Part shown: positions 2,870-61,200 of the stretch, in pieces
Layout: each line of letters starts with the position of its first letter
Numbering within the stretch: the first letter of the stretch is position 1
NCBI GenBank assembly: GCA_014871385.1
Contig: CM026422.1
Span: 9,137,374-9,201,373 of the forward strand
Direction of reading: 5' to 3'
DNA: 64,000 nt
Source of the DNA: Ceratodon purpureus
Taxonomy: Eukaryota > Streptophyta > Bryopsida > Pseudoditrichales > Ditrichaceae
The notes under the pieces: model-generated
The model's input: the letters and a program-made list of their open reading frames with translations, nothing else
What the model was told of the DNA's origin: nothing
The model's database searches: none
Made by a program: the position numbers and the translations under genes

Positions 2870-5688
2870 CGAACAATCCCGGACTCCCTCCCCCCTCATC
2901 TTCCCCACTAAACCCTACTCCACTCCTCCCCTCTCCCCTCCCCCTCCACCAAACAAACTCCCCTCGCCCTCACCCCCTACCTCCCACTCACCTTCCTCTC
3001 AACTGATCACACTCTCATCACTCCACTCCACTCCACTCCCCCATCCAAGCTTCCACACCCGAAACCGCACCGAAACACCAAAGACCTAAATTGCGCCAAT
3101 CACGTAAATCACGTCCAAATCGAGCTCGGCGAAGCTCATTCGAATCCCTGCAACCAGCTGAACGCGGAGCTCCCACAAGCAAGCGGACAGAACCACGGAC
3201 GCCCCTGCGCTTGAATGCCACAGTCTCCACACAACCCAGCGATGGCGATCGAGATCAGTAACACCTCGCAACACAACAAAACACTCATCTGCTTCCCGAA
3301 CATCACTTCCTCGTACACCCAAAACCATCACCAACCCCAAATCCAACAATATCTACGAATAGCTTACGTCCGAGGGAGCTGGATCTAGAGATTTCGTAGA
3401 TGGTGACGGGTTTTGAGAATGGGTCCCTCGCGCAGGGAGATGTCGGGGGCGATGGTGACGACTGATGGGGCGCGTGGTGACGGGGACGAAGAGATGGTTG
3501 GCCAATGGGAGGGCCGGGGAGCTGATGTGGCAGGGCGTGATTGGGCGGGGGCTGGCGATGCGCTTCATTAGAGGTGCGAAGAGTGTCACGCTTGGCTTCG
3601 AGTGTGTTTCTGTTCTTGGTATTGTGAGGATTTGCGTCTTGCTTTTGCTTGTTCCAGGACTGTGTGAGTGTGAGCACTTGATTAGTTTACTTTTTCTAAC
3701 AGCTGAGTTTCTTAATTTTTAATTCTTTTGGCTGCCCGGGGATTTCTCTACAGCAATCAGTGCATAGACTACGTAAAAGAAGAAGAGGGGCCGCGGTGAA
3801 TATAGTGTTTGTTCATTCTATTCATTAATTGATGGCCACTGGACAAAAGATAGTAAATCTAAAGCTATTTCCTAAAAGATGTACCGTAGTTGAAGACTCA
3901 ATTGAAGGGAGAAATGTTGCAGGCAAATGATTGTAATTCTTACTTGATGAGATACATTGGGCCGAATGGATACTTCCGAAGCCATAGGAACAAAGTTGGT
4001 GTACAAAGAGGTGTTGATGGAAGAGAAGATCCATATGAATCTACCTTGCTTAAAAGTGGTTGTTCTTCTTTACTTAGATTGCCCAGAAGGCCTAACAGAC
4101 TATCTTAGAGTAGAGAAGTTAGACTTGGAGCATATTTGGATCTCACAGCACCTTACAATATACTAACGAATCTGAAACCTTGTTCTTTTTCCTTCTTTGG
4201 TCATTTGTATTCACATACATGATACAACCACTACTACTTACAATTCATCATTCAATCAAAGCTAATTGTTCAATTGCAGCTCATTGTTCCTACTCCTTCT
4301 TGGGGTTCTCCTAGCAGACAATCTCACTTATGGGAATTTTTGTGTAAGCCGCACTGTACCAATTGACTTGGTTTTGCATTTTTGAATTGCAAAGGTTATT
4401 TTTTGTATTAATCTATTTACGGCGCTTTAGCGATAGTGTTTGATTGACCTTGCCATGCTTGTTTGAATTGCAATATAGTTTTTTCTTTTTTTCGAGGTTT
4501 CTGTTCAATATTGAAGCTATGTTCAATTAGGCCAAATAGAATTTATCTTTTTAATCCGTATGAGCCTCACCCGGTCCAATTCTGCTCTGCTACCAACTTT
4601 AAGGATGATCAAGCCTTATCTGCTATGATAACCTCTTCCTAGAGCATCTCGGCTATATGAAGTCTTAGTGGCTTTAAACCTTGCTTATCTACCACCATTC
4701 CCATTTTTTAAAGAAAAAATCACGTAATTCACTCAATAATCAATTTCTTTGAATGAAAATTAGTTTGCCAAAATGGTTTATGAATTATCTATGTTTACTT
4801 AAATTCTCAAAAAAAATCAATACTTCCTGCAATTATATGATGCATACAAACTTGTCCAAAATCACTCTTGTCTATTTGGAGATAAAATACTTCAAACATG
4901 AGGTGACATGTTTGCTTGTCTTTTAGATTTTTTCTTTTTTTCACTTAAAGGATGGACATCAATCTTTTCTTTGACCGTTTGGATTGGGACTTTATAACAT
5001 AATGGAATTTCTAGAAAAGAAATATAAATTAGCATGCTTTTGTATTTAACTTAATAAAAAAAAATCAACATGTTACACTTATCTTTTGTGTGTGATTTTT
5101 TTTGTTCAATTAGCTAAGTTAGTCTTATTTTCCATGCACCAAAACCCCCAAAATTCATAATGAAAATTACCAAAAAAAAAAAAGTTATAGTGTTTTGACC
5201 TAGTTAAAAATTGTGTCAAAAAAGTTTGTTTTCAAAATTCAATTGCTATAATCTTCTAATCTCTTCGATTGATTATGATGAATGTTTTTGAGCTATCTAC
5301 TACAATAATCTAATTAAAGATCTTACGGTTAGGATTAGAAAATAATGAGTTTTTAGTCATTCATGCTTTTTACATTGGAAATGACAATTTTGAAGCGTTT
5401 TTTAATGAAACATAGTCAAAGAACCTTAGGGGTTAATCAAAGTTGCTTGATGCTCAGACAATGCGGATTTACAACCCTTATTTCAGTTTAGTCAAATTTC
5501 CTATGACCAAGATAACTTGTTTCTCTACATTGTTGTTGCTTAGATAATCAAAGAAGTATTTAGTAACCTTTGATCTATTGTTGGAACAAATCATGTAGCT
5601 ATTTTTACTCATATTATTTGTACTAACTTTTAGAAGATTGAACATTTATTGTATAAGTTTATTCTTCCTAGGAATTGATACAATTCTT
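2870..5688. other. Spacer upstream of the P58IPK-like gene
   Basis: From 2880 to about 3060 the plus strand is strongly C/T-rich with few purines, which on the transcribed (minus) strand is a purine-rich leader and probably the 5' UTR or promoter of the P58IPK-like gene. Beyond about 3750 the sequence becomes AT-rich with homopolymer runs. Short open frames at 3465-3722 and 3890-4166 match no family I recognise. No gene is called. Confidence 0.5.
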
Positions 5689-5946
5689 AGTCTTTACACT
5701 AAAGTTGTATGTGTGTGAGTGAAGAAAAGTTTAGTCTTTACACTAAAGTTGTATGTGTGTGAGTGAAGAAAAGTTTAGTCTTTACACTAAAGTTGTATGT
5801 GTGTGAGTGAAGAAAAGTTTAGTCTTTACACTAAAGTTGTATGTGTGTGAGTGAAGAAAAGTTTAGTCTTTACACTAAAGTTGTATGTGTGTGAGTGAAG
5901 AAAAGTTTAGTCTTTACACTAAAGTTGTATGTGTGTGAGTGAAGAA
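5689..5946. repeat. 44-bp tandem repeat, six copies
   Basis: The phrase AAAGTTGTATGTGTGTGAGT recurs at 5701, 5745, 5789, 5833, 5877 and 5921, an exact 44-bp period. Copies are almost identical; the last one diverges at its end (GAAGAATAG). Near identity implies recent amplification. No coding potential is seen in it. Confidence 0.95.
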
Positions 5947-7690
5947 TAGTTGTTGTTGGCTGAATGGAAAGTTTAACAACATCAAGTGCACACAACATAC
6001 TATCAAGTGCAATATTGATGCACTTTTATTATTATGTCAAATAACTATAACACCATGGTCTATTATGAAATCAATGCTTCTTGGATAAAATTGCATTTTT
6101 TAGGAAAACAATGAAGACACAATACAAGTTTATTAATCAACTTTTTCATGAGCTGCTTTCAATAATTGGCAGTCTCGTAGCTGGCGATGCATTCAGATAA
6201 GTGATTCTATACAAGTTACAACTTTGAGGTGCATGTGCAAATATATGAGGCGTCTACATAACTTGTTGGTCCTTTTCGAATTCCATCCTTATCATCAAAA
6301 TTAGAGAACATCACAAAGGAACGGTCGTCCTGTTGCGGTGCACACTAGTCATCAAGCGATACAACAAAGTCAAAGAAGAAAATTCATGCCCTAAATGAGT
6401 CATGCTTACAGCTCTTGACCATAATCTAGGAAAAATGAGACGACAAGAAAAAAAATGTAGTTTGGAGTTGCAGGAGGTTGGAATAGAGAAATGAGCACCA
6501 TTAGAAGATAGCGGTAATAAGGTATGATCATATTCATTATATTGGGACTTTTTGTTGATTTTGAGATAAAATGCTTATTATCAAAAATTTCATTTGAAAA
6601 ATAAATAAATGAAACCAAAAATATATAATACTCAAATAGTGATCCTATAATAAAAACTTAAAAGTTTGTGTTGTTATCTATCAATTGAAAATTACAAGTA
6701 AAGTGATTTATCCTCGAATCAAGGAAAAAAATAAGATTGCAAAAGGTCTTAATATAACAACTATGATGTTAAGTGGACATGGTAGAATTGATTGAATCAG
6801 GGGCGTCCACATTAGCGCATGTGGATTGCCATGAACAAGAGAACATGGCAATCTAAATGAAGGATTGGAGCATTATGGAGGTGGGTTGGAGGAAATGGAG
6901 CCTTAATATGGAAGTGAGAAGCAAAGGCATGGAGATTTTTTAACACAGACTCGAAGTGAAGACGTAGATATATCCCCAAAGAAGAGAGCAGCAAGAAAGA
7001 ATTTATATTACACAACAACAATTGAATAACAAAGGAGAAGACACTCATGAAGAAGACGATGGAGAAAATAGTGGTGAGAATATTGGAAGCATTTGTCATG
7101 ATTTTTGAACTGAAACATGTAGTCAAAATAGTTTTGCATATTATCTTATTCCAACGCATTTTGTTAAACTAGGTAGTTGGAGAGCTTATCATAGATATCT
7201 CCGATCATTTTTATTATTGTGGAGATTTTTTGGCCATACAACTACATGTACTTTATTGTTATTGAGACAAATAGATACTCAACCAAGGACTTGGCTATGG
7301 TAGAACCAGAGGTGGACCAAGTTGAAAGGATTTGACAATTTCAAATTAAATTGAAATGTTAGAATCTAGTTATATATGGTCATGAAAAAGCAACCTGACC
7401 TGAGGACCTATTGGACAAGAAAAAGAAGCATACTTTGTCTTATTATTTCTAGCCTCGTGAATTACTGACAATATGAAGCTATTAGGCATAGCCGACATAT
7501 AACCATGAAGCTATTAGGCATAACCTACATATAACCAACTGAGCAATGTACAACAAGATTGAGGGAGGCGTATTGAAATTTCATAAAATTTGACTAATTA
7601 GATGATTAGTGAATAAGGTAAAGAATAATTGTAAACTAGTGTGGTCACTTGGAAAATATATTTTACTAGAAAAAAGGATGATTAGGTATA
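5947..7690. other. AT-rich spacer with one 32-bp direct duplication
   Basis: No gene recognised. A 32-bp unit (beginning ATGAAGCTATTAGGCATA) occurs twice in tandem at about 7473-7504 and 7505-7536 with two differences. Short open frames on the minus strand at 6406-6618 and 6812-7159 are T-rich, hydrophobic and resemble no family. Confidence 0.5.
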
Positions 7691-12240: not shown

Positions 12241-15001
12241 ACAAATTAGATGGATATCCACGTATATTACACTACAACAGGATTTGTCTCACTAGAGCAT
12301 TCTGTGCTGGAATTTGTCAAGGATACAAACCAAGCTCCGGTCAATGTGCTCAACGGCACGGGTCCGACTAGTGTAGCACAAGAATGCATTCTCTTGTTTC
12401 AAAATATAAAAGTAAAAATCCTTCACAGTGTGAACAACAATTAGTGCACACTTCACTATGACTCTCGACACTACTCCTTCCATCTTTCCATGCATGCAGA
12501 ACTAAATATCACCTCAAACAAAGCACTTAACAAGACGCATGCCTCCAGCATTCAATACCGGTAACACACTACAGGCACCGCCCAAAAATAGAATAACAAG
12601 CACAGCAATAAAACAAGCACAGCAATAAAACAACCACAGCATGAACAGGGCCCCCTCCATGGCCCGCACCACTGTAGCAACCCCAGCGGGCACTGGGCAC
12701 TGGAAACGAATCCAGATCTAACAGTACCGTATCGGCCCGCTTTTGCCAATTTAACGCCGCACCACCACTGTAAGATACTGCCCCCCTGCATATATCTCTG
12801 TGCATACGCACTGATGCGAACAATGAACAATGAGCCACTGTTGCAGATGCCCCATCGCCCCCTGTATTGTCCCGATTCTTGCCAATTAAACTCCGCAAGT
12901 TACTGTTCCCGCATTACGCACAGCAGATGCGCACAAATGGAATTCAATTGGAGAGTCTCACTGTATTCTACCGGATCCAGGCCCGCTTTATGCCAATAAA
13001 ATCCACTGAACGTTATGTTACTGTTGCCGCTGGCATCGCTGTACAGACCACTGTTGCGGCTGGTGTTGCTGTACAGACCACTGTTGCAGATGCCGCACAC
13101 GCCCTGCACTGCACTGGGCACGAGCACCGGGCTGGGACGGCCGGGAAACACGACGACGGCGACGCAGTGAGGTATTGATAGAAAACACGGCGCGGTCGTG
13201 ACGGGCTCGTGACGACGTCAGGGACGAGCGCGAGGGTGGGAGGTCCGCGATCGACCGAGATGCGGGCAACACGATTTGGTCGAGGGCCGCGGCTATAAAC
13301 AAATAGGCGGAGCGAGCGGAATGCGCGATTACACGATCCGGGGGAGATTCGCGATCGGGGACGATGGTGGAGGACGTACTTGCAGTTTTTAAGTTATGTT
13401 AAGTGAGACGTCGACGACAGTGGCGCTTGCTGTGCCGGGGGTTCGATTATAGATGCAGGCTGTCGCGGCCATGATGAAGGTGGTGACAGTTTGACGAAGC
13501 ATGCCGGTGACGTTCTCGGGAGCTTCGGAAATTAATAAAATAATGAGGTCTCGAGAGGAGGGGATGGCGTCGAGGTGGAGCGCCGGCCGGGCGGGCGGTC
13601 CATGCCGACCGGGCGCCGAAGCCATGGCCGTGGTTATGAACGCCAGCGTGCTGGTGGTTGGTCGCACAATCTCAGCTGCGGAGCCGGCCATGCATTTTGT
13701 CGATTGTCCAGTGTCCGATCCCAGCGCGGACGGACGTCATACTTTGACAGTGCGTTTGTCCGATTCGGTCGTTCCATTTTCTAAACCAGTGATGGCTTAG
13801 GTCGGTTTTGGATCTCGTTAGGTGGAGGTAGAGAGGTTCTGCGAGGGCGCAGTTAGGAGCGTGTGAGTGAACTGTATGATCGATCACAGTGAGGAGTGTT
13901 TGGTGTCGGAGGTTAGGCTTGGTGATACATGCGACGGCGTGTGGAGACGGGGAAGTGTGAGAAGGAGAGGGAATAGAGGTGCGAACGTGTGCGCCGGGGA
14001 GGAATTTGGAAGTAGTTTAGATTTGAGGTTGACGCAATGCGGTTGTGGTTAGTCGTAATTTGAGAGCAGGCTGTGGCGGATTCCGGCAGGTGCTGGGTTA
14101 ATGGATAGGTGGTGGTGAGCTTGTGAGGAAGTGTGGCGCCATCGGAGGGTTTGGATTGTGGAAGCGTGAGGGCGATATGATGAGAATCTTGATGCACCGA
14201 GTTTTGGCCTTGATCTCTTTGAAACGACGTTACCACAGCGCTTTAGGTCGGAATAGTGGCTGTTTGCGGTGAAGCTGAGTGCGCGTTGAGGGAATGGATG
14301 AGTTGCTGCCGCGGCATCGACGGTGCGTAACTCTTGATTCTCGTTCAGGTTCGCCATGTGCTGCTGGTGATTGCTTCTTTCTTGTCTATGAGTGTAATTG
14401 TTTCATGTACTGCACTTCCCTCTGCTAGATAATTTCCTTTGCACACTGTGTCACTGCTTTAATTTTTAGCTGTCAAAGAATCGCTCCTTTTATATCCTTG
14501 GTGAGCGTTTAAGTGCAGTGCTGAACCCTCTAGATTGAGTTAGGTTATTGAGAGGTGTCACATATTTTGTCTCTCTTTGGCAATACTTATTAAGCCGTGA
14601 AGAGAAGTCGAGTGCTTAAGAGCTGCCTAGGGTTAGTTTATGAGAGGTCGACCTGTATGCATCCGGTGGCAATCAAGGGGGCACAATCTGTAGAACACGA
14701 TACTGAACCCTGAGGGAACCCAGAAGAAGATTTTCAACTCGGCCTCTTTAGAATGTTGAAAGCTAGGTTCGACTAATTGTTAGCGGGTGCAGCAGCTGGA
14801 ATCATATGGTGAACTAATCCTGACATACCTGTGCAATGAACTATGGACATGTATGTATGCTGTCTTTACTATGGCAGTGAAGGTGCCGCACTGCACTTGG
14901 ACGTTGACGTCGATGCGAACGGGGCGGTGTTATTAAGAAGCTGGTGTACAATTTGCTGAACTAGAATATTGGGAAATTCTTTGTTCAGGCGAAGTTTCAC
15001 G
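12241..15001. other. GC-rich upstream region and probable 5' leader of the GRAS gene
   Basis: Composition changes sharply from AT-rich to GC-rich near 12,540. Degenerate repeats occur between 12,730 and 13,100. A 30-bp unit around GCTGTACAGACCACTGTTGC is present twice at about 13,020-13,085, and a diverged motif of the type CCCGCTTT-TGCCAAT recurs near 12,737, 12,871 and 12,980. Several 60-110 codon open frames on both strands overlap one another and match nothing. They look like by-products of GC richness. The last kilobase probably holds the promoter and long leader of the GRAS gene; a possible 3' splice acceptor (TTTGTTCAG) lies just before its ATG. Confidence 0.4.
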
Positions 15002-17312
15002 ATGAGAGCCGTCATGGATGAGGCATCCGAAAACTTTATGGAAGTAGACGACCTGTTTAATGGAATTCCGCAAACGATCAATAGCTCCGGTGGAGGCTCA
15101 ATTTTGCGGAATGATCAAATGCATGAATGGCGAAATGGCGATCTCACACAATGGTTCGATGGTGCCATTGATGTGATCGGATCCCACGAAGCGGTTGGTA
15201 CTCGCCTCAACGATGGTCCCCTTCAAACTTACAACCCTTGGTCGGTGATTGAAGAACCCATCGTCCTCACTCGAGGTAACCCTTACCATATAGACTACAA
15301 CGACTCTTACGGTGCTGATAAGCTACCTCTCAATGCTGCCGAGATGTTGCAAATTCCTGTCACAAGTGGACAAGATGCTGCTTACGTTGACAGTTGGTCG
15401 TCGACGGACTCAGGCTCACCGATGTTACCGAGCAATCTAGCAGTTGAGTTCCTCCAAGATGACATGATCAATGGCGGCGCTGACCCCATGGAGCTCGCAA
15501 TAAAGGGTCTATCTGGCAGTGTAAGGTCTACGAGCTTGCAAGTAGACGGCATGGAATTTGACGATGAGGGACAGAAGGGCGTTGCAACTCATGCGGCTTA
15601 TAAGATGTTGGGATCAAGTACCTATCCACAGAGTATGGTGGAATTTTCAATGCACTACGCCGGGATGCTACAACCGCCATTCCGACTGGGGGCAGGGCAT
15701 CCACAGAATATGGTGGAAATTCCAATGCAGTCCGGCGGAATGGTGCCACCGCCATTCCGACTGGGGGCTGGGCGGGTTGCAAGGAAGAAAATGACGCACG
15801 CGTGGTGGCAGCGTGGAAAATCGACTTTCGTAATTCCAGACAATATCAAGATGCGAGAAGACAGAGACATAATGATGACTATAGAGCCGGGCCCGCGTGA
15901 TACTCTCCAGCCGATGCAACGGGTAGTGCCACCCGGAGGCTCACGCTGGGCCGAGCAGTTGCTCAATTTGTGCGCCGGCGCCATAGCCGACCGCAATGTT
16001 GCCCGAACTCAGCATCTCATGTGGGTGTTGAACGAGTTGGCATCATTCACGGGTGACGGCAACGAGCGCCTGGCGGCCTACGGCCTGAAGGCGCTTTTCT
16101 GCAGGATTACTCAGGGCACCTCAGAGGCGACATACCTCAGACCGTTTCATCATCAAGAGAAGCAGTTGGGCCCGAAGGCAGTGCACAAGGCGCTCGTGAC
16201 ATTCCATGAGTTCAACCCCTGGCACCAAATTTCATACACGGTGACAAACGAAGCGCTCATGGACGTGTTTGCAGGGAAGAACCACCTACATATTGTGGAT
16301 ATTGGCGTCATGAAAGGCTTGCAATGGCCTACCCTCATCGACGCACTTGCTAATCGCCCTGGTGGACCTCCGACGAAGCTGAGGATTACGACTCTTAGGC
16401 ATCACAATAAGTGGGCACCGTTTACGCACAACGACCAAGTGGACGCAGAATCGGCAGACTTCATGCGCCGCCTAGTTACGTTTGCTAAAGTGCTTGGTTT
16501 CAACTGCGAGCTCAACTTGTACGCCGGTCCTATGGAGTGTTTTAGAGAAAAAGACCTTAAGCTTGAAGAGGGAGAAGTAAACGCTGAACTCAATTCACTT
16601 AAATCTGTCAATCAATTCTCTTTGGCAGTGTCGCGTGCAATGTGGTGTAGAATTTTGAATTCGAATTTGATGATTCTGTTCATGTGCTTGCAAGCAGACT
16701 TTGGCGGTTTGCTGTCAGTTTCGATTACACAGACTTACAAACCTGGTGTCACCTCAAGCTCGTCACAGCTCGTCGGATCCGCAACGTACACCTCGAGACG
16801 ATTTTTTGGATTTTGTTCACTCATTGAAGCCGAGTTTGTTCATAGTGAGCGAGAACGATGTGGACATGCTCTCGGAACACTTTCCCACCCGGTTCAAGGA
16901 AATCATTCGCTTCTGGTGGTATTTCTTCGAATCCACAGATCTGTCCTTCAAGGGGAGGGAGCCAGACGCGCGTGGGATCGTAGAGTATGAGGGATCAATG
17001 ATCATGCAAAACGCGATCGCATGCGAGGGGCGTGAAAGGATGGAGCGGAACGATCGCCAGGAGAATTGGATGAAGCTCATCCGGCGAGCGGGGTTCGTGC
17101 CTGTGCCTATCAGTGAGGACATCAAGAAGGTGGTGAAAAATCAACTGCAGAGAAACGATGTTACCGAAAATTGGAGTGTCTCGTACTCTATCCTGGGTAA
17201 CACGAATTGCGTCAACTTAATGTGGAAGGAGAACACCACCCTCTTCACCTCTCTTTGGAAGACGCCCACATGCTCTCGGAAATCATGTAAATGCAGCATG
17301 CTTCATGACTAG
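15002..17312 (+). CDS. GRAS family transcriptional regulator, SHORT-ROOT-like
   Basis: Two exons, 15002-16576 and 16698-17312, joined in phase 0 (donor GAA/GTAAAC, acceptor AAGCAG/ACT), encode 729 residues. The N-terminal ~310 residues are acidic and low-complexity. The GRAS domain runs from about residue 311 to the end. It contains the first leucine-rich block (WAEQLLNLCAGAIADRNVAR), MWVLNELAS typical of SHR relatives, and a VHIID-type motif reading LHIVDIG near residue 430. The PFYRE-like section follows (SLKPSLFIVSENDVDM, GIVEYEGSMIMQNAIACEG) and a C-terminal SAW block with conserved Trp residues (ENWSV, NLMWKE, TSLW). Removing the intron restores EEGE-TLAVCCQFRLHRL, which fits the family. 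GRAS proteins act in the nucleus, SHR relatives with SCARECROW partners. The ATG at 15002 is the first in frame; 15014 is an alternative. Subfamily assignment is moderate. Confidence 0.9.
15637..15776 (+). repeat. Internal 75-bp duplication within the GRAS N-terminal region
   Basis: Two adjacent 25-residue units share the pattern Q-x-MVE-x-x-M-x-x-x-GM-x-x-PPFRLGAG. The DNA is also alike (both contain CCGCCATTCCGACTGGGGGC), so this is a recent in-frame tandem duplication in the variable N-terminal region. Confidence 0.85.
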
Positions 17313-23314: not shown

Positions 23315-26300
23315 TCAGAACCATTTCCACCTTCCACCTCTAGAATCCTCGACGTTCAGCGCGTCGCGCTCACTTCTAAACCAATCTATTATGACATAGC
23401 CTGGCCAATCATCAAATTCTTCGTCCGGAGATAAATCATCCTCCGTGACTGAGCGCAGATGTTTCAGCATCCTCGCAATCAGAAAGGCCTTCGGCTTTTC
23501 GAGCTGATCCCAACAGTCAAGGTTCTCAACCGCATCGATCGCAGGAGCCATGTTAACATATCCATCAACACGAAGATAAAGGAAATGCAATGACTCTAGT
23601 GACTCGACAATCGGTATACTCGCCAATTGGTGTAATGGAACCAGCCCCTCTAGCACCAAGTCTCTCATGTGAGGGCACTCGAATTCCTCCAAATTCGTCA
23701 ATTTCGGACAGTTCAACATTTTAAGCCAGTGCAAGGAAGTACATGACCGGAGGTCGGGACCATGCGTTAGAGAGTCCAGATCATATAGAAGCACACTTTG
23801 CAGTGACTCGTAGATGCCCACGTTCTGGTCTGTGCCTGAACTTCCAGTTAAGGTAACAGTCACCAATTTCTTGAGCCTGACGAGCTCCAAATGCCGGAGA
23901 CTATCGAGGCCGTGAAGATCCAGCTCTGTCAAGTTGGAGCAGGAATGGAGTTGCAGCACCTCAAGGTTGTGCAGCTCTTGCATCATCTTGCTTGCAACCA
24001 GCCGTGCACTAGTACGGGACAGGTCAAACACTCGCAGCCTTACTAGGTCTGATTTCGGAGAATGGCATTTTTGGGCGGCTCGTGATGATTGAAATACACC
24101 CCATGAGTTCTTCAACCCTTTCATTCCATGTTCTGTTGCATACCACTCTGCGAATTCCTTGTACAGAGAAGGAACTGGGACTGAGAATAAACCATACCAA
24201 TCATGATCTGTATTGTCATACATGATCATACCAGACCTTGTCAGATCCTGCAACTGCATCACAGAGAAACGTTCTTCAATAAGATGTGCACTGCACTAAA
24301 ACAAGACAAGCTGCAGAACAGAGATACAGAGAGGCAGCTAGCACCATTTCCTTCACAACTCATGAAGTATTGGGGCGAAAGGACTCTGGGGATCGTACTT
24401 ACTTTTCTTTTCAGAACTGGTACCGAGACGTCATGTAATTTAGATAGCCATTCGAAAAACCTGAAAAGATGGCTAGTATTATGATAATCGATAGAGTAGT
24501 TTAAATTAACCCATTCCTTCATGTAAAGCGCAATATCCAGAAACAAAAGCTGCTCGCTTGGATGTAAGCTACTGAATTGTAGCTCAATAATGCTTCTGAT
24601 ACTCCGAGATTTCCAGACATCCTTTAGCAGGTCCTCGTGCTTCTCAAGATGGTCCTTCCAGCGCAACATTTGAGTATTGCTGATGTATCTGCGAAAGAAA
24701 TCTCCTAACGCCGAGAGTGCTAGCGGGTGATAGCTCCTCCAACCTGACTCACACATATGTCTGTCGGATAAAAACTGCTTCTCGTGCACATCCGGTTCAC
24801 ACGATACTTCATAGCCCTCCGACTCAAACAAGCACTGCTGAATACAAAGCCCAACAACTCTTCGCTCTTCGTCTGTAAGCCCAAAAATGGATTTCATAGG
24901 AGCGGCACTCCTCAGAAATATTTCTCCTGCCTCCTTCACCGTCAATCTTGGCATGGGCATGCAGAATTCTACGCCTGGTAACAGGTCCTGAATATTAGCT
25001 TTGCTCCTTGATGTGAGCAATATTCTGCTCTGGGGATGGAATCCAATCATCAAGTACTCCTGAGCTTCTCTCCACGAACTCTCATCACTGGTCACATTGT
25101 CAATGGCTAGAAACACGGGTTCCCGCTGCACGCAATCTCGCAAGAGCTTCAACCCCTGACATGTTGATTGCAAACCACTAAGACAGGTGAGCAAGCTAAG
25201 AGCTAACATCTGAGCCATATTCTTCATATTCCAATTATGGAAAAAGGCTTGCACGATACTGCAAGGGAGTAAATTTTGAGGTAATTGTCAATGGAGGTTG
25301 ATTATTAACACTGGTATCAAGAAATGAGCATAAACTCAAATCACTTGCACGTGCAACAAAAAACCATTATGTAAAATGATCTGAAGATGCTCAGTTGACA
25401 CGAAAAATTGCAATACCTGACGGTCATCTGTAATTCTATCCAAGACATCCCTTTCAATACCACACAGGTTCTTCAGCATCAACCTTTGCCGCCTCATCCT
25501 GGACCTCTCACTCAACAGTTCCACATGACAAACCCTGGACGAAAACTCTGCAGAGAAGTAATCGCACAAGGCTTTAGACAATGTTGATTTTCCACGTCCA
25601 GTCGTTCCATACAACCCTAACACTGGTGCCCCCACCGTCGCGTTTTTCACAAAGCGACTTGTTGCTATCTGCAACCGACAACCAATTGTCATCCAAAGTC
25701 AGTAGAAGTGCTGCTAAGCTATCTGAAACATTCGACTACATAATCCCTGCTAATACTAGGAAAGAACACTTGAACGCAGAATGAAACAGGCACAGTAATG
25801 TGTTCGTCGAGTACAATGCAAGGCATGTTCTATCTCGCCAAATCTTCCATATTTTCATAATATCTGCCTAACTTTCAGCAACCTAGAAGGTTTATTTCGT
25901 CAACATATTCCATGGTCCAAGCGGAAGTTCTAGACCTGCTAATGCCTAGGAAACAGAGTTGGATCGAAGCAGAATGAACATTCTTCACGTACCTCACACA
26001 TCCGGTCATAACCCACCATATCCCTTGAACTGCCGTATAGCAGGTCTGGAGGCGATAGTTGGAAAATGGTTCGCACAACCTCCTTTCTGTAACCCACCTC
26101 AGACATTGCATTCCTGTCGAGTGTGAGGCCATTCACCTTCCGTAATGCTCTCACAGCGGCACTCCATTTTGCTACGTCAATTCTTTTCTCTTTATCCTTG
26201 CTAGCTAGTTGTACCCATGTTGGCATCCAACATTCCTCAATAGCCCTATCGTTGAGATCGTCAGCTGATAACTTGTAGAAAAGTGGGAGCATATTTAACC

Positions 26301-27901
26301 GTTGGTTCCCGGCTTGTTGAGCGGCGTGAAACTCTGCAAGCTCTATCATGGGCCACTTGGAACACAAGAACTCCGCCGACAACACTATTACGGCAACATG
26401 ACACAGTTGGGCTGCCTCTTTTATGAAAGGCACGAAATCCTTGCCCTTTGGCAGACTGTGGTGTCTCTGGTCAAAGAATGGGAAGATACAACCTTGTGCT
26501 TCCAGATCCGCGCACAACTGTTCCACAAAATCTTTCTGTGTTCCGGAGTGACACAGAAATACTTTGTGCTTCGCTCCATCAAGCTTGAATGAGCTGCAAA
26601 TGAGTGTCTGTGCTTGAGAAAGGCCATGATAACCTCATGCTAAACACATCAATATTAATATTGACGAAGGACAGACTTGTGTCAGTGAATTGAGTTGCTA
26701 GTGTACAATTTATGACCTAGCCTTTGTCCACATCTTCCTTGTGAACTGAGAGATGATATTGTACTTGGTAATAGTGCATCTAGCATTCTATCAAGACACT
26801 GTTTCAGAAACTGTGATGGTCTGGTATACCTGGCGTGCTTCATATTATGTCCGCCTGGAGAATGTTCAAGTAAATTACCACATGTTGATTCTGTGGGGTG
26901 ACATGAAGAGAAAAGGCATTCGGTTTCTTGCTCATGTATTGAACACTGTAACAGCACAGTGACTCACAACTCCATTAGCAAAGAAGAAAGATGCATGCGT
27001 CTTTCTCCCTCACAGTTCAAACTTTATACATAACCTAGCCACATGTATAATAATATCTGAACCAAAAACACTGAAATTTTCAAAACATGTCCTTTGGACG
27101 TAACACAATATTCAAAAGAAAGCCCCTGCTAGTTCCAGACTGACGGAGGATTAATAGGTTCATCTTTAGTTCTTCGGATGGACAGTACGAATTCTAAAGA
27201 CCATATGTGCTAAACACAGTGAGGGTACAAAAAGGACGCCCAATGTGATGTGTAAAAAACAGAACGGAGGCGCACCTCGCCCGAATACTGCAATTGATGA
27301 ACATCACAGAGCTTGGTAGGACTGGAAACACCGTTGTTGTCAACACTCTTGATTCGCTTCCCACCCCTGCCAAGTTCTGTTTCTCCAACAACATATGCGA
27401 CATGAGTTAAAAGGACATCAAGAAACTAACACACACATCAATGATGGGCCTATGAGAAAGCTTCTTGAAAGATTCATCATTTAGCCCAAAGCCCCAAAGT
27501 CAACCTTTCAATAGACAATTAACTGCGGAATGTAGGCATCTAGAGCATGCTCGGAAAAATCGCCATCCATTCGGATTGTAAACAAGGACAATGTCCTCCA
27601 AATTGTTAAGAGGAATTTAATACTTACCAGTCAGAGAACGTCTTCGCTCGCTTTCCTGCCCTACTGCATTGCCACTTTCGATAGCAGCTGACGGACTGTT
27701 CGACTCTGTATTCGCCTGTGCCAAGATACCGAGATTGGTATGTTACAACTGTACAAATTAGTCATAAGTCTTTCAGACGGACGCATTAAAATCCACTTAG
27801 ACTGCGGTTTCAATAATCCATGTGCTCGTAGTTTCAACACATCTTGCCTGCTTATCGTGTCGTGTCGAGCCAGCTGCAGGGATACTCGAAGCTCCTCCCA
27901 T
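23315..27901 (-). CDS. TIR-NB-LRR intracellular immune receptor (TNL)
   Basis: Proposed exons: 27848-27901, 27628-27715, 27276-27376, 25993-26607, 25417-25668, about 24403-25221 and 23315-24295, giving about 970 residues. An N-terminal extension of about 80 Ser/Arg-rich residues precedes the TIR domain (KHKVFLCHSGTQKDFVEQL). The TIR domain includes SAEFLCSKWPMIELAEF, with the Glu that is catalytic in TIR NADases. The NB part shows a P-loop GTTGRGKST (about residue 307), a kinase-2-like VFLAIDNV, RNBS-B SRILLTSRSK and a GLPL variant HPLALSALG. After a winged-helix-like ERFSVMQLQDLTRSGMIM come leucine-rich repeats (LEVLQLHSCSNLTELDL), ending at WKWF. TNLs sense pathogen effectors; TIR NADase activity triggers defence. 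The boundary between P-loop exon and next exon is uncertain because the best acceptor is out of phase. The first intron seems to be GC-AG. The start ATG is provisional. Confidence 0.85.
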
Positions 27902-53030: not shown

Positions 53031-54240
53031 AATAAAAACACTGCACTTTCTACGGTGTCTGTGTACACACTGGTGAAAATAAAAAACATCTGGATGAGCT
53101 GCACCTATAATGCATCGCAGACCTACCTACAATCAAAATATCTAAATTTGTAAATCTTCATTCTAAGTTTGAATACAATATCGTTAAAGTAGCCGGAAAC
53201 CTCCATAGCAATCCTCCAGTAGTGTATACATATGAGCCCCAAAAATGTCTAACTTAACGTGTCTGAGCCATTGCCCAAGCTATCTTTGTTGTCTTCAATG
53301 GATAGAAACTCTTTGCTCCCAGACATCTCTTAATCAACCGTTCCTTTCGTTCTTGAGGCATCTTCGCTGCGCTTTTTCAAATGCAGCATGTTCTTCGATG
53401 TAGTTGGGTGAAGAAGCTGCTCACTTTATATCAATCTAGTCTTGCGCACAAACTGCAGGTCAGTGACATTTGGAGTACAATTGAATTCAGCCTCCTACAT
53501 CAAGATCCACACTTAAATAAATTAATGTCAAAATCAACATAGACTTATAAAATACAGGGCTAGCGCACTCACACAACCTGTCACATCTACACATGTGCAA
53601 GTATAAAAATATAAGCGCATACGAGGACAAGTGATGGTCGTAATCATTGAAGCCACTCAAAGACAAAGGCATTGACATAGTTCTATGACCAACTACAGTA
53701 ACGATTTGAAGGACGTATTCACTATATACCGGAGTATAGACCAAAGAATAGCACATATTCTTCTTATTTTTGAGTATATACAATAACATGCTCTGAAATC
53801 TACTAAAAAACATTCCAACACTACATCCCCCATTTATACTTCATTTCAACAACAATATTACTTCACCTTAGGACCAATTTTTTTACAATAGCATAACAGC
53901 AAACGAATAATTAGATCAGCCAAAGTGAGCATAACAGTAATTACGGAAAAAATTACAAATCCAAACAATAGTATTACACAGCTTCTCAAAACAAAAACAA
54001 AGGTCTCTTTGAACCTTCCTAGTTTCCTACTAAAGTTGAAGTTAGACAACAACATTCCAAAACATAGACAGGATAATGCACACCTAAAATAATTAACAAT
54101 AGCAAAACTTAGGAAAAAAAAGAGCACATTTCAAACCTCAAATAGCCTACCGAGTGACCATGCAGCCATACTCTGATGGAGAATGAAAACACAGTAAAAT
54201 AAGTAATAAGTAAAACCAGCCAATATGTACAGTTCATAGC
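53031..54240. other. Spacer
   Basis: No recognised gene. A T-rich minus-strand frame at 53858-54127 is hydrophobic only because of its base composition. Confidence 0.5.
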
Positions 54241-54430
54241 CTCTAGCCTCCAAGTGGCAGCCCAAGCCTCCAGCCTCCAAGTGGCAGCCCAAGCCTCCAG
54301 CCTCCAAGTGGCAGCCCTAGCCTCCAGCCTCCAAGTGGCAGCCCTAGCCTCCAGCCTCCAAGTGGCAGCCCTAGCCTCCAGCCTCCAAGTGGTACTACCA
54401 AGCCTCCAGCCTCTAAATCGCAGCCTCCAA
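54241..54430. repeat. 27-bp tandem repeat, six copies
   Basis: CAAGTGG recurs at 54251, 54278, 54305, 54332, 54359 and 54386, a 27-bp period with unit CTCCAGCCTCCAAGTGGCAG plus seven bases. Since 27 is a multiple of three, one plus-strand frame stays open as a 9-residue repeat (ASSLQVAAL), but it has no flanking coding context. Confidence 0.95.
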
Positions 54431-56247: not shown

Positions 56248-57947
56248 TTACAAGGCACCCAGATGGCCCTGTGCACGGATCTCCTCAACGTGCTTGGCAT
56301 ACGGCACGATGACCTCCTCATGCACGTCCTTGAAATAGGGGCTTGCAGCCTCTTCCACATCCGCCAGCCACTTGTTAATCCTTTCACGGCATCCCAGCAG
56401 GCTCTCCTGACCCTCTTTGCCAAGCAACTGGAACCATCCGCAATTTGTCACTATTCCAGAGCTTCAATTGGCATATATGTGTGGTCACAACACAGTAGAG
56501 CAACTTCAAATTTAATTTGAAGGAAATGAGCACTACGCCATACCTGTAAATGTGCGAGCTCGCACGCAAGACTCAGATCAGCTATGGACAGCTCGTTTGC
56601 ATTTTGCAGGAACTTGCCGTGTTGGAGCATGAACTCCAGCTGGTCGAACACTCGAGGTAGCATCTTGACAGATTCTGCGCTTAGAGCGTCGTGATCTGTA
56701 TCTGGAAAGAAACCGGCGTGTCCAGGCAGCTTCCACAAGACGCGGCTTATAACCAACTGAGCTGCATGATGAATTATATAACCAAGGGAAGATTTATGTG
56801 CTTGTCATGAGCACACTGTCGAAGAATTAACTGAATCAAAGTAATGGATTGGAAACCAAGTAGAGTTAGAAAGGAAGAACACAGGGAAAGCCATCTTTGT
56901 TTTAGATTTCACAAAAAGTCACCTGCGTATCTGCGCAGATTCAGATGGTGCCAATCGAGGGCAGCATCAACAAGGGCACGTTGCTTGGGATCCTTCGGGT
57001 ACCTCAAAGATGAAACGAGACTATCTGGGTCAAAAAGCCATTGTAGCAAACAGATTTGGTCCTATTCCATAAAATTTCATGGTGTAAACAAGCAAATGTT
57101 TATTGCAAAAATTCCAAATCTTAGCGATGGTCACCGGCAGTATGCTCACCAGTGGTCTGCCACATTGCGTGTCGTTGCCAAATATCGTAGAATGGCATGG
57201 CTGCACGATAAAAGCACCAATCGAGATGATTAAGTGTAATTCTGGAAGTAGGAGATTAATGCTAGTTTATAAAAGCCTGAATCAATCAAGGCCTTGCAGT
57301 AGTGAGGATGTACCTTTCGTAGAGCTTGAATCCGTTGTCGTCAATACATGGTATTAGACCCATGGGGTTGATTTTTTCTGCACCACATGGTGGCAACCAG
57401 TCAAAACGCCAACCGGTGAAAACGTCAATACTCGAGCAAATAACATGCCTTTGAGCTCAGAGATCGTCCATCACGAAGTTATGAAATGTAATTTCTAAGA
57501 GATCGCCCCACACAAACTAAACTTCGATTAATGAATAGAATTAAGCAGCTAAAGAAGCTAACTCTTGTACTCCGCGGTCCTGGACTCCAATTGCAGAATA
57601 TCCACTTTGATCTCCTCAGCTTCAATGTGGTTTGCCCTGCAGGAGAAACTCTAATCATTTTCTTGGATATTTGAAACAGAGAAATTGACGAACTCTAGGA
57701 CATCAGATTTGTTGTTGCAAAGTGACTCAACCTGCAGTTAATTTTGAACAAATATATTCGACCTTGTTTGAATCCAATCAGCTGCAGCTAATCTCTAGAT
57801 GGCCATGGCTGAACAGCTAGAATGAAAACACCGAAAAGAGTGGAACATCAAAATCACTTACCTGCAGAAGATGGTGATTGCTCGAGCCGGCTGCGACCCC
57901 TGATGCACATACAGCTTCAACCCACTGCTATCTTCATGGTTCGCCAT
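56248..57947 (-). CDS. Glutathione S-transferase, theta class
   Basis: Seven exons in phase (57862-57947, 57563-57636, 57314-57377, 57150-57200, 56923-57002, 56544-56761, 56248-56427) give 250 residues. The N-terminal thioredoxin-like domain has LYVHQGSQPARAITIFCR, where S18 is the expected theta-class catalytic serine. It continues as EYKKINPMGLIPCIDDNGFK and YESHAILRYLATTRNVADHW (glutathione-binding Glu-Ser-His). The C-terminal helical domain includes LVDAALDWHHLNLRRYA and NANELSIADLSLACELAHLQ with the conserved N-capping Ser-x-x-Asp. Overall layout equals plant GSTT proteins, which detoxify electrophiles and reduce organic hydroperoxides. The ATG at 57947 is the only good start. The two-ORF unit at 58.6 kb is divergently oriented about 650 bp away. 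Confidence 0.95.
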
Positions 57948-58593
57948 GATGAGAGTACCCACAAACTGTTAGTACGATGATGAACAAGCTGAAGACTCAC
58001 AAGCTGTTGTTTCTTAATGCCAGCTAAAGTGGGGGCTTTAGCTCACGCTCTTATAGTGGAAGTTCAGAGTGCAGACAAGAAGTTGCTCAGGGTTACTCCA
58101 TTCGGAGGTCAGAAGAAGCTTGACTACAGCAAGCTTGACTACTCCTGTGATATTTGGAAGAGATCATAGAGAGAGGTGGAGAGCCCTCACAGGAATAGGG
58201 ATACAAATGACACATGCCCAGTGCCAAATATCGTAGAATGGCATGCATTATATACCCGTACACGGTTTATGATCAGCAGCTCCACTGCATTTTCTGGAGC
58301 AAAAGTTGAATCAGATGTAAATGCAGTTTTTCACACGATTCTCTGAGGGCGCCCATGTGCGACTGAATGGGCCATGGCTCATGAGCAGTTCTTTAAAGTA
58401 CTGATTCGATTGAAATATTGGTCTGAAAAGAGAAAAGTTAAGGGACTTGTTTTGACTGTATAGCTCCAAGAAGACGAACTCTCTGCGTAACAATGTTGTA
58501 CTTGAACTGATTCCTACAAGTGTGCCGAGACTTAGACTCATCAAAGACCGACGGATCATGCAGAATTTGTTGCATCCAGAATGGTATCCTTGT
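57948..58593. promoter_or_regulatory. Intergenic region between divergent GST and the PIG-Y/SCD2 unit
   Basis: This 650-bp stretch must contain the GST promoter and may serve the plus-strand unit as well. It holds a 24-bp copy of part of GST exon 4 (58,223-58,246, starting TGCCAAATATCGTAGAATGG). No specific promoter element was assigned. Confidence 0.4.
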
Positions 58594-58638
58594 GGTGCGC
58601 CACTGCCAGGCGCTGCTTCCCCTCCCCGACTCCAGGCT

Positions 58639-58938
58639 ATGGATGGCCGGCCTGCGCCTGCGCTCTTCCGATTGCCGTCGCTAGCACGCAAGTCCTGTGC
58701 TCCCCCACAGCTCCTCCTCCGCTGGGGCCTGCTCCTCGTCTGCATCGGCGTTGTGGGTTTTGGCGTTGTCTTGTACGCCTCGCTGCTTTCGAAGCTACTG
58801 CCGCCCTCCGGCGCTCCCTTTCTCGACGCTGTGCGTCGCGACTGGTACTACAGTTTGGTTGTTCCGCTTACGGGGCCTGTAATTGTCGCGGCTGTGTATT
58901 TCCATTGGTTGAGTATGAAGCTCTTCAAGCATGCCTGA
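58639..58938 (+). CDS. PIG-Y-like subunit of GPI-GlcNAc transferase
   Basis: A 99-residue intronless ORF with two predicted transmembrane segments: LLVCIGVVGFGVVLYASLL, then YYSLVVPLTGPVIVAAVYFH. It ends WLSMKLFKHA, very like the PIG-Y C-terminus, where the signature is YYSLLLP(I/L)T.PV...W..(M)KLF+H. PIG-Y is a small ER membrane subunit of the enzyme that adds GlcNAc to phosphatidylinositol, the first step of GPI-anchor synthesis, and contacts PIG-A. The ATG at 58639 (context GGCTATGG) was chosen because it lies within the proposed retroposed segment; an in-frame ATG at 58558 would add 27 residues but lies left of the 14-bp repeat. The stop is 266 bp before the SCD2 ATG on the same strand, so the two may share one transcript. 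Confidence 0.8.
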   Translation: MDGRPAPALFRLPSLARKSCAPPQLLLRWGLLLVCIGVVGFGVVLYASLLSKLLPPSGAPFLDAVRRDWYYSLVVPLTGPVIVAAVYFHWLSMKLFKHA

Positions 58939-59204
58939 CGTGATTTCATAGGAGTAACTAATAATACAGCAGATTATGCCTACCCATTCGTTAGAAGAGC
59001 TTTGAAAAGTAAATTTCCTGTTGCATCCGACGTCCTGATGCGATGATTTGTGCGAGGCCATCTCAACCTTAGGCGTTTTAGGGGTTTAGTCCTTGCGCTT
59101 CTTCGGAAATCAGCGAATTCTCTGTTTTACAGGAAGTTCGTTTACTTCGGAGGGTAGTGGGACGCTTCAGCGACAGGAAGTTAAAGGTGAACCGGTATTC
59201 ACCG

Positions 59205-60869
59205 ATGGCTGAGAGGGAGAGAAATGGAAGCCCTTTGCTTGGCCGGCAAAGGAGCGTTCATGGAGGTCTGGGAGGCATTCCTCCTGCACGGTCTGGCTCT
59301 GGTTCTAGTTCCAGTTCAATCAATTCTTTAAAGAAAAGTCAGAACTATGCCGCCAAGGTAGCGGCAGCTCGTCTTGCACAAGTTATGCAGGCTAACCGCG
59401 ACTCCATAGACGACGATGACGAGGATGATATGCCTCGTTACAGTCCCTATATACCCAGTGCAAGGGACTTTACTAGAGACCAGTCTCCTGGATTCAGGGG
59501 GCACTACGACTCAAGTCCTGCAACCCTCGGAAGCACGTTACGGCCGTCAGCAAACCCTCGAGGATCGTTGCGGCCGACAGCTTTGGCTGCATCACAACCC
59601 ACTGCCCAGCGTCCGAGACCAGTTTTACCCATGGGGCCTGCCACATTGCGATCAGTGTCTCCGACACCTGAGCCCCTTGCTGATCGTGTTCGCAGGTTTT
59701 CCTCTGATTTGCCAGTCTCGGGGGGTGGCCACGATTCTTCTGGACCGAATTCAAGAAGAGAAACTGCTGCTTTGCGTGATGAAATTGATATGCTCCAAGA
59801 AGATAACGAAACGCTTCTTGATAAGCTGCCAATTGTGGAGGAAAAGCTTGCTGAGAGGGATCTGAGATCACGCGAACTGGAGAAGCAGGTTACTGCACTT
59901 GGCGAAGGCATCTCACTGGACTCCCGAATCCTGAACAGGAAGGAACAATTCTTGAAGCAACGAGAAGCAGCTTTGAAAGCAGCAAAGGAGCAGAGCAAAG
60001 ACGTTAAGGACGATGAAATTGCAGCGTTGCGTGTGGAGGCTGAGGTTGCAAGGGAGGAGGCAGTTGCAGCTTCTGAGGCCGCTCGCGAGGTGGAGATTGA
60101 AGTGAAGGCATTGACACAAGAAGAAATGGAAGAGGTGGTTCTGAAGCGGTGTTGGCTTGCACGGTACTGGGGACTGGCTGCAAAACATGGGATTCATCCC
60201 GAGATAGCAACTGCAAAGTCAGACTTTTGGTCATCACTTGCACCATTACCTTTAGAGGTGGTTCTGTCTGCAGGGCAACGAGCGAAGGAGGAACCTAGCT
60301 CTCAAAATCGAAGTAGCACGACATCGAATCAAACAAAGGGGAAGACCCGTGATGTGAATGACATAACCGGGGAGGGCAAATATATTGAGAGCATGCTAGC
60401 GGTGGAGAAAGGATTGAGAGAGTTGGCTGCTCTCAAGGTGGAAGACGCTGTTATGCTGGTATTAGCTCGACATCGACAGACATTAGATGTGCGCAAGTCA
60501 ACAGATGGTCCCAAAGGTCCAGATGCTTTTGAGTTGAGTCCGATTGAGGTGGAGGATGTGCAGTTCAAGCAGGCGTGGTTGGTGTACTTCTGGCGCCGTG
60601 CGAAGACGAATGGGGTGGAGGCTGATTATGCCGATGAGTGCATACAACTCTGGATCAGTCGGACTATGCTCCAACCCACAATGCGTGACTTGGTGGATGT
60701 GGAGCGCGGTTTGATGGAATTAAGGAAGCTCGGGATCGAGGAGCAGCTTTGGAATGTCTCGCGCAGAGAGATTGCTAACGAAGCAGCCAATCAGAAGGTT
60801 GATGTGCTTGAAGTATTGCAGGCACCGAGCACTCTCCAGAGGGTCACAAGTGCACCTACTCTGCAGTAG
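59205..60869 (+). CDS. SCD2 homologue (stomatal cytokinesis defective 2-like), coiled-coil trafficking protein
   Basis: A single uninterrupted ORF of 554 residues. The N-terminal third is Ser/Pro/Arg-rich (GSPLLGRQRSV) with the conserved AAKVAAARLAQVMQ helix and an acidic patch. A coiled coil follows from about residue 188 (ALRDEIDMLQEDNETLLDKL, ELEKQVTALGEG) to about 305. The C-terminal half has the plant-specific conserved blocks QEEMEEVVLKRCWLARYWGL, PLPLEVVLSAGQRA, ESMLAVEKGLRELAALKVED, FKQAWLVYFWRRAKTNGVE and DVERGLMELRKLGIEEQLW, diagnostic for SCD2. Arabidopsis SCD2 acts with SCD1 in post-Golgi and clathrin-linked membrane traffic needed for cytokinesis. The start ATG 59205 matches the family N-terminus; the frame is open upstream to 59157 without ATG. 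Absence of introns is unusual for this family in flowering plants. Confidence 0.93.
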   Translation: MAERERNGSPLLGRQRSVHGGLGGIPPARSGSGSSSSSINSLKKSQNYAAKVAAARLAQVMQANRDSIDDDDEDDMPRYSPYIPSARDFTRDQSPGFRGHYDSSPATLGSTLRPSANPRGSLRPTALAASQPTAQRPRPVLPMGPATLRSVSPTPEPLADRVRRFSSDLPVSGGGHDSSGPNSRRETAALRDEIDMLQEDNETLLDKLPIVEEKLAERDLRSRELEKQVTALGEGISLDSRILNRKEQFLKQREAALKAAKEQSKDVKDDEIAALRVEAEVAREEAVAASEAAREVEIEVKALTQEEMEEVVLKRCWLARYWGLAAKHGIHPEIATAKSDFWSSLAPLPLEVVLSAGQRAKEEPSSQNRSSTTSNQTKGKTRDVNDITGEGKYIESMLAVEKGLRELAALKVEDAVMLVLARHRQTLDVRKSTDGPKGPDAFELSPIEVEDVQFKQAWLVYFWRRAKTNGVEADYADECIQLWISRTMLQPTMRDLVDVERGLMELRKLGIEEQLWNVSRREIANEAANQKVDVLEVLQAPSTLQRVTSAPTLQ

Positions 60870-61200
60870 AGTGGTGGGCACGTGTGATCGCCCAAGTTTT
60901 CTAGTATATTAGGTAACATTTCTACAGGAGCCCACAGGTAGTGGACTATGAGCCTTGATATAATTGCCCGGCTTTCCTTGTTTAGCCCTTTGTGAGGAGA
61001 AATAGTTTAGAAATAGCCCTTTCTAACAGTCGTCATGAGAGCCCACGCTGATAGGGTCACCTTCACCATCGTTGTATGATGACGATTCATGACTGGGTTG
61101 ATATTCACATCCTCCACTCGTTTAATTACATCGTGCACTTTAAATGGACAAAAAAAAAAAAAAAGAAAAAAGAAAAAAAAGAATAAAATGGTATCCTTGT

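What the first reader, a model, noticed from the sequence alone, without database searches (positions are those of the whole stretch)
58580..61200. Retroposed dicistronic-looking unit: PIG-Y then SCD2, both intronless, with A-tail and 14-bp target duplications
Seen: AATGGTATCCTTGT at 58580-58593 and at 61187-61200, the latter directly after an A-rich tail; two intact ORFs of unrelated families between them, with no introns, 266 bp apart on one strand. Known: LINE-type retroposition leaves intronless copies, 3' A-tails and 7-20 bp direct repeats; human PIG-Y is itself made from a bicistronic mRNA (PIGY/PYURF). Inference: one mRNA carrying both ORFs was copied here, so the source gene made a dicistronic transcript linking GPI-anchor synthesis to post-Golgi traffic. 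Both frames are intact, which argues for retained function or a recent event.
Basis: partly seen in the sequence, partly recalled or inferred. Interest (0 to 1): 0.88.

Follow-up and report, generated by a model that had tools for sequence, protein, structure and literature searches.

The report
Moss retrocopy carrying two genes' RNA
In a moss genome, one RNA carrying two unrelated genes end to end seems to have been copied back into the DNA, with clean footprints at both ends; it looks like a recent and probably decaying copy of a read-through RNA, not proof of a working two-gene message.

Summary
A 14-bp repeat (58580-58593, 61187-61200) brackets an intron-free unit that starts 45 nt before an intact PIG-Y ORF, runs through an intact SCD2 ORF and ends in a 37-nt A-rich tail touching the second repeat. 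The window's SCD2 protein lies on a 26.63-Mb contig whose length equals that of a named Ceratodon purpureus (moss) protein. The PIG-Y copy differs by one residue from C. purpureus chromosome-11 PIG-Y. Relatives appear to have introns.

Best reading: a LINE-type retrocopy of one RNA that ran through adjacent PIG-Y and SCD2-A genes, inserted upstream of a divergent GST gene. A regulated dicistronic gene linking GPI synthesis to traffic is not supported: the listed copies of the two genes lie on different contigs in 11 of 12 other plants, the PIG-Y start context is favourable, and the copied SCD2 lacks a 9-residue hinge at which none of 118 other listed relatives has a gap. Open frames fit recency without selection. 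The parental locus was not seen (genome search did not complete), so an mRNA-mRNA chimera and a true moss dicistron stay open.

The parts
58580..58593 (+). 5' copy of the 14-bp target-site duplication
58594..61186 (+). retrocopy proper (2593 bp, A tail included)
   Evidence: bounded by the two repeats
58594..58638 (+). 45-nt leader before the PIG-Y ATG; contains no ATG (presumed near-complete 5' end of the source RNA)
58639..58938 (+). PIG-Y ORF, 99 aa, one residue (V for I) different from C. purpureus chromosome-11 PIG-Y
58939..59204 (+). 266-nt stretch between the ORFs; longest A run 4; three ATGs with ORFs of 2 to 9 codons start in it
59205..60869 (+). SCD2-A ORF, 554 aa, open but with changes derived on the window branch
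59829..59831 (+). codon of R209P in a predicted helix (R in 117 of 118 other listed relatives)
60111..60116 (+). junction where nine residues are missing (position ambiguous by one Leu); none of 118 other listed relatives has a gap there
60378..60383 (+). Asn (112 of 118) replaced by Lys-Tyr (one residue gained)
60870..61149 (+). 3' UTR of the copied RNA (280 nt)
61150..61186 (+). A-rich tail, 33 of 37 A
   Evidence: Tandem Repeats Finder reports 61150-61188
61187..61200 (+). 3' copy of the target-site duplication, directly after the tail
57862..57947 (-). first coding exon of a divergent glutathione S-transferase gene; its ATG lies about 650 bp from the insertion point
   Evidence: exon end read by eye from a GT donor

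Best explanation
A processed retrocopy of one spliced, polyadenylated RNA that began just upstream of PIG-Y and ran through a neighbouring downstream SCD2-A gene to its poly(A) site. LINE-type target-primed reverse transcription inserted it into C. purpureus chromosome 2, upstream of a divergent GST gene. Shown: the repeats, the tail, the uninterrupted frames, the near-identity to a chromosome-11 PIG-Y, and the damage in the SCD2 copy. Inferred: introns in the parents (from proteins of relatives); that PIG-Y and SCD2-A are or were adjacent in the parent; that the source was an ordinary read-through transcript and not a dedicated dicistron; that the SCD2 copy makes no working protein, while the PIG-Y copy might if a promoter, for instance the nearby GST region, drives it.
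For: Exact 14-bp repeats, the second abutting the A tail. One tail and one repeat pair for two ORFs, with no A run longer than 4 between them. Four moss-like PIG-Y proteins from unnamed contigs stop matching at the same DW(Y) position, two of them continuing with a valine (GTN) as a splice donor would give, while the window reads through. Two proteins of one Sphagnum fallax SCD2 gene differ as spliced isoforms do (P0010, P0022). The window SCD2 is sister to P0002 in moss clade A (98/94, branches 0.022 and 0.013) and PIG-Y differs at 1 of 99 residues, so the event is recent. Damage: 9-residue loss at the end of the long helix and hinge (P0002 model: helix 238-310, then 314-336), R209P, N392K plus a Tyr. 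Read-through RNAs occur at 271 Arabidopsis loci (passages).
Against: The parental locus was not seen: adjacency of PIG-Y and SCD2-A is unproven. No PIG-Y protein among those listed (59; 120 of 342) has the contig length of the nearest SCD2 transcript contigs (2337, 2614, 2336). One PIG-Y protein from an unnamed JGI contig (P0128) reads through the presumed intron site, so either that record is RNA-derived or not all relatives have the intron. Conservation of the SCD2 sites changed on the window branch (mean 0.69, 9 scorable of 12) does not differ from random columns (0.74) nor from the P0002 branch (0.71, n=5), so relaxed selection is not proven by that test. The target site is not the L1-type TT/AAAA site that I recall. 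No LINE reverse transcriptase turned up in 15 of the 16 ORFs of at least 130 codons outside the unit that were scanned, so the mechanism is inferred from footprints.
Confidence: 0.7

Rival explanations
1. Chimeric retrocopy: during one insertion the reverse transcriptase copied SCD2-A mRNA from its tail and then switched template to a separate PIG-Y mRNA. No joint RNA ever existed.
For: The listed copies of the two genes are on different contigs in 11 of 12 other plants; no contig length of the nearest SCD2 transcripts recurs among the listed PIG-Y proteins.
Against: A jump onto the 3' end of a second polyadenylated RNA should leave A's at the junction; the longest A run in the 266 nt between the ORFs is 4. 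An internal jump or an unpolyadenylated template is needed.
Confidence: 0.14
2. A genuine moss dicistronic gene: PIG-Y and SCD2-A are normally made from one mRNA, as with CDC26-TTM3 in plants, and the retrocopy is a fossil of it.
For: Two whole ORFs in one RNA; a short upstream ORF with a short 45-nt leader, a feature named for algal bicistrons; plant and algal precedents (PMC11892635 and PMC9768141, passages).
Against: The PIG-Y ATG has G at -3 and G at +4, while the SCD2 ATG has C at -3 (G at +4), the reverse of the weak-then-strong pattern of the algal cases; seven ATGs precede the SCD2 ATG against 7.9 in shuffles, so there is no depletion. No linkage of the listed copies in 11 of 12 plants. 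The parental mRNA was not examined.
Confidence: 0.1
3. Orphan retrogene: the window copy has replaced its SCD2-A parent and is the working SCD2-A of C. purpureus.
For: Besides the window's own P0001, the only C. purpureus-named SCD2 among the 120 rows listed is the clade-B paralogue P0008; P0002's species is unknown; the frame is open.
Against: The copy lacks a hinge peptide at which none of 118 other listed relatives has a gap, and has R209P; 90% clustering may hide an annotated parent inside P0002's 8-member cluster.
Confidence: 0.05
4. Not retroposition: a segmental DNA duplication or a gene-capturing DNA transposon, the repeat being chance.
For: None found.
Against: Chance of the repeat about 6e-6; A tail abutting the repeat; frames without introns.
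Confidence: 0.01

Closest known systems
PIPSL (hominoid co-retroposed PIP5K1A-PSMD4; PMC2773790, passages seen)
   Same: Two genes copied to another chromosome from one read-through RNA
   Different: PIPSL is one chimeric gene; here two unfused ORFs remain, in a plant, and the parents' adjacency is not shown
Ordinary LINE-mediated processed retrocopy (features recalled)
   Same: No introns, A tail, 14-bp target-site duplication, distant from the PIG-Y parent
   Different: Carries two unrelated complete ORFs
Plant polycistronic read-through transcripts, 271 Arabidopsis loci (PMC9768141, passages seen)
   Same: One RNA over two neighbouring genes; likely the kind of source RNA
   Different: Seen there as RNA, here as a genomic fossil; the parent RNA was not observed
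CDC26-TTM3 bicistron (mentioned in passages; original paper not seen)
   Same: An upstream ORF plus an unrelated downstream ORF in one plant mRNA
   Different: Said to be conserved in plants and green algae; PIG-Y/SCD2 linkage is not seen in 11 of 12 plants
Human PYURF-PIGY bicistron (PMC13303939, passages seen)
   Same: PIG-Y made from a two-ORF mRNA
   Different: PIG-Y is the downstream ORF there (recalled) and its partner is not SCD2, so I read the likeness as coincidence

Membership tests
Processed (LINE-type) retrocopy | Target-site duplication of 7-20 bp | tested here: met
   14 of 14 bp, only two occurrences in 64 kb
Processed (LINE-type) retrocopy | 3' A tail next to the repeat | tested here: met
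   61150-61186, 33 of 37 A
Processed (LINE-type) retrocopy | Introns of the parent absent | tested here: inconclusive
   Introns inferred from broken PIG-Y proteins (4, with 1 reading through) and Sphagnum SCD2 isoforms; parental DNA not seen
Processed (LINE-type) retrocopy | Parent gene elsewhere in the genome | tested here: inconclusive
   PIG-Y: C. purpureus M758_11G161300, 1 of 99 residues different. SCD2-A: nearest is the unnamed P0002; the genome search did not complete
Processed (LINE-type) retrocopy | LINE endonuclease site at the target | tested here: inconclusive
   Site CCAG|AATGG is not the TT/AAAA consensus that I recall; the moss LINE preference is not known to me
Co-retroposed read-through RNA (PIPSL type) | Parents adjacent and co-oriented | not tested
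   The genome search unanswered in 14 tries
Co-retroposed read-through RNA (PIPSL type) | Both genes inside one insertion with one tail | tested here: met
Translated dicistronic gene (algal type) | Short leader before ORF 1 | tested here: met
   45 nt; feature from PMC11892635 passages
Translated dicistronic gene (algal type) | Weak start context of ORF 1 and few upstream ATGs | tested here: not met
   ORF 1 G-3/G+4, ORF 2 C-3/G+4; 7 ATGs against 7.9 shuffled; features from PMC11892635 passages
Translated dicistronic gene (CDC26-TTM3 type) | Arrangement conserved across species | tested here: not met
   Listed copies on different contigs in 11 of 12 species; unlisted SCD2 copies, and mosses other than Sphagnum jensenii, could not be compared
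PIG-Y (PF15159) | Pfam gathering score | tested here: met
   59.6 bits against cut-off 25
SCD2 | Full-length similarity to annotated SCD2 | tested here: met
   81% over 97% to the Physcomitrium patens SCD2; hinge peptide missing

The most novel reading that the evidence does not exclude
Mosses (or the Ceratodon lineage) make PIG-Y and SCD2-A from one dedicated dicistronic nuclear mRNA, another plant case beside CDC26-TTM3. Its retrocopy on chromosome 2 is a natural capture of that message, and the PIG-Y ORF in it is still in use.
Probability: 0.1. Interest if true: 0.65.

Novelty: new member of a known kind. Interest (0 to 1): 0.38.

Why it matters
Retrocopies of two-gene RNAs seem to be rarely reported. 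My searches for them (capped listings) led me to one paper that I opened, on PIPSL, whose passages also name one mouse locus; three further papers listed hold the word co-retroposed once each and were not opened. Such copies freeze a read-through RNA in DNA, so they can record transcripts that decay too fast to be seen. This one has unusually clean borders, and it is in a plant. If the parent proved to be a dedicated dicistron, it would add to the few nuclear dicistrons that I know of in land plants.

Tried and rejected
Shared contig lengths: I compared by eye the contig lengths of the SCD2 hits (120 of 1671 listed) with those of the PIG-Y hits (all 59, 120 of 342) to find a transcript carrying both. 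None of the listed moss-like transcript contigs matched. The only shared length that I found is a Telopea speciosissima chromosome (65,806,066 bp), which shows linkage at chromosome level at most. Trema orientale and Papaver nudicaule also have both genes listed, on different contigs, but these are short scaffolds; I left both out of the 12.

Bacterial and viral collections: the search for related loci with the SCD2 ORF found no relative, as expected for a plant gene.

Exon skipping as the cause of the missing nine residues: attractive (27 nt, in frame) but unproven. Among the 120 listed SCD2 proteins only the window copy has a gap there, and a short-homology deletion at Leu codons would explain it equally well.

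Selection test: 5 of the 12 changes on the window branch fall on columns at least 90% conserved (37% of columns are), with mean conservation 0.69 (9 scorable) against 0.74 for random columns, so they look random. But the P0002 branch gives 0.71 (n=5), and five control branches of other SCD2 genes give 0.56 to 0.67 (n 12 to 41); a sixth had no changes. The contrast is slight. If the SCD2 changes are all neutral, 17 point mutations are implied; the chance of no stop in either ORF is then 0.45, and of no frameshift 0.13 to 0.26 at assumed indel rates. PIG-Y would be expected to have 2.1 residue changes, and the chance of at most one is 0.37. Open frames are thus weak evidence for function, for PIG-Y too. 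One search failed by a script error after one line of output; one search repeats it.

Literature: (pig-y, bicistronic, plant) returned 0 papers; searches are the other nine searches. Of four papers I saw passages only; all others as search listings.
Full report
What is there. The repeat AATGGTATCCTTGT lies at 58580-58593 and 61187-61200 and occurs nowhere else in the window. Between the copies are, in order, a 45-nt leader without ATG, a 99-codon ORF, 266 nt, a 554-codon ORF, 280 nt and a 37-nt A-rich tail that touches the second repeat. The sequence after the tail matches the kilobase upstream of the first ORF over 14 nt; among 57,000 control start points the longest match was 13, and 5.7e-6 exact matches are expected. 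The first ORF is PIG-Y (PF15159, 59.6 bits against a cut-off of 25). The second is SCD2: many of its homologues are named so in plants, including one of Physcomitrium patens at 81% identity. The window protein sits on a 26,629,683-bp contig, the same length as that of C. purpureus KC19_2G031200, so I take the window to be C. purpureus chromosome 2; that is an inference from contig length and locus tag.

Spliced RNA. The PIG-Y copy differs from C. purpureus M758_11G161300, on a 16.66-Mb contig, at one of 99 residues. Four moss-like PIG-Y proteins from unnamed contigs stop matching at the same place: P0126 and P0129 end at DW, P0125 and P0179 read DWY and then an unrelated stretch that begins with valine, as a GT splice donor would give. 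The window reads straight through. Against this, P0128, also from an unnamed JGI contig, reads through too; it may come from RNA, which I cannot tell. Two proteins of one Sphagnum fallax SCD2 gene (P0010, P0022) differ by one Gln and by their ends, as alternative splicing does. So introns in the relatives are likely, and their absence here is what a spliced RNA copy predicts. I did not see parental DNA.

One RNA or two. There is one repeat pair and one tail, and no A run longer than four in the 266 nt between the ORFs. A jump from SCD2 mRNA to the polyadenylated end of a PIG-Y mRNA should have left A's there. One RNA is therefore the simpler reading, as in PIPSL, where two adjacent genes were copied from a read-through transcript (PMC2773790, passages). 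The adjacency of the parents is the missing proof: the genome search did not answer in any of 14 calls.

Read-through or dedicated dicistron. Arabidopsis long-read work found 271 loci with read-through RNAs, 165 of them seen only in an NMD mutant, whose second ORFs are rarely translated (PMC9768141, passages). Algal bicistrons have short leaders, weak ORF-1 contexts and fewer ATGs before ORF 2 (PMC11892635, passages). Here the leader is short, but the PIG-Y ATG has G at -3 and +4, the SCD2 ATG has C at -3, and 7 ATGs precede the SCD2 ATG against 7.9 in shuffles. In the hit lists I found by eye 12 other species with both genes on contigs above 9 Mb. In 11 the listed copies lie on different contigs (Ceratopteris richardii, Cryptomeria japonica, Stephania cephalantha, S. 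japonica, Zizania palustris, Acacia crassicarpa, Senna tora, Camellia fascicularis, Liquidambar formosana, Spirodela intermedia, Sphagnum jensenii); in one, Telopea speciosissima, the contig length is shared. Only listed copies could be compared: SCD2 is often multi-copy, and a third Sphagnum jensenii copy may exist. This speaks against an ancient functional pairing but leaves a moss-specific one open.

Age and state. In a tree of 28 SCD2 proteins the window copy is sister to P0002, an unnamed transcript protein, within moss clade A (support 98/94, branches 0.022 and 0.013); the named C. purpureus gene P0008 is in the other moss clade. Among the 120 listed proteins the window copy alone lacks nine residues (LRTMTHRMI or RTMTHRMIL); none of the 118 others besides P0002 has a gap there, nor has P0002. 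It carries P where 117 of 118 have R, K-Y where 112 of 118 have N, V for A at residue 52 (113 of 116 A) and V for A at residue 419 (108 of 118 A). In the P0002 model (mean pLDDT 62.7, pTM 0.44, but 81 to 87 in the blocks around both sites) the lost peptide spans the end of the long helix 238-310 and the turn before helix 314-336, and the proline falls in helix 181-232. Of the changes between the window and P0002, 12 could be placed on the window branch, 5 on P0002's, and 2 were ambiguous. The sites hit on the window branch are about as conserved as random columns, but so are those of the short P0002 branch, and control branches of other SCD2 genes are only somewhat lower (0.56 to 0.67 against 0.69), so this test does not decide. 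If the SCD2 changes were neutral, about 1% divergence is implied, and the chance of no stop in either ORF is 0.45. The open frames need no selection to explain them.

Setting. About 650 bp upstream, on the other strand, starts a glutathione S-transferase gene (GST_N E 8.1e-11 for joined first exons). The copy thus landed near a promoter that could drive it; whether it is transcribed is unknown.

Verdict. A real, well-bounded retrocopy, probably of a single two-gene RNA: uncommon and worth recording. The dicistronic-gene claim and the link between GPI synthesis and traffic go beyond the evidence.

Noticed in passing
57176-57199 and 58222-58245: A 24-bp exact duplicate of a GST exon piece (encoding HAILRYLA) lies in the GST gene's own upstream region, about 1 kb away: perhaps a fragment of a duplicated exon.
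   Followed up: partly
23318-26634 (minus strand): A TIR domain (25942-26634, E 2.1e-15) and leucine-rich-repeat matches below the curated cut-offs (23318-24295) flank a 342-aa frame without a Pfam match: a TIR-LRR-like gene with an unrecognised middle part.
   Followed up: no
14960-17309 (plus strand): A GRAS-domain gene read in two overlapping frames (profile 2-202, then 200-374), suggesting an intron or a frameshift in mid-domain.
   Followed up: no
5687-5951 and 54238-54425: Minisatellites: six 44-bp units at 99% matches, and about seven 27-bp units at 91%.
   Followed up: no
P0001-P0019 (proteins): Mosses seem to carry two old SCD2 clades: A with P0001-P0005 and P0018 (97/96), B with P0007, P0008, P0012, P0013 and P0019 (100/100); the tree is rooted at its midpoint.
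   Followed up: partly
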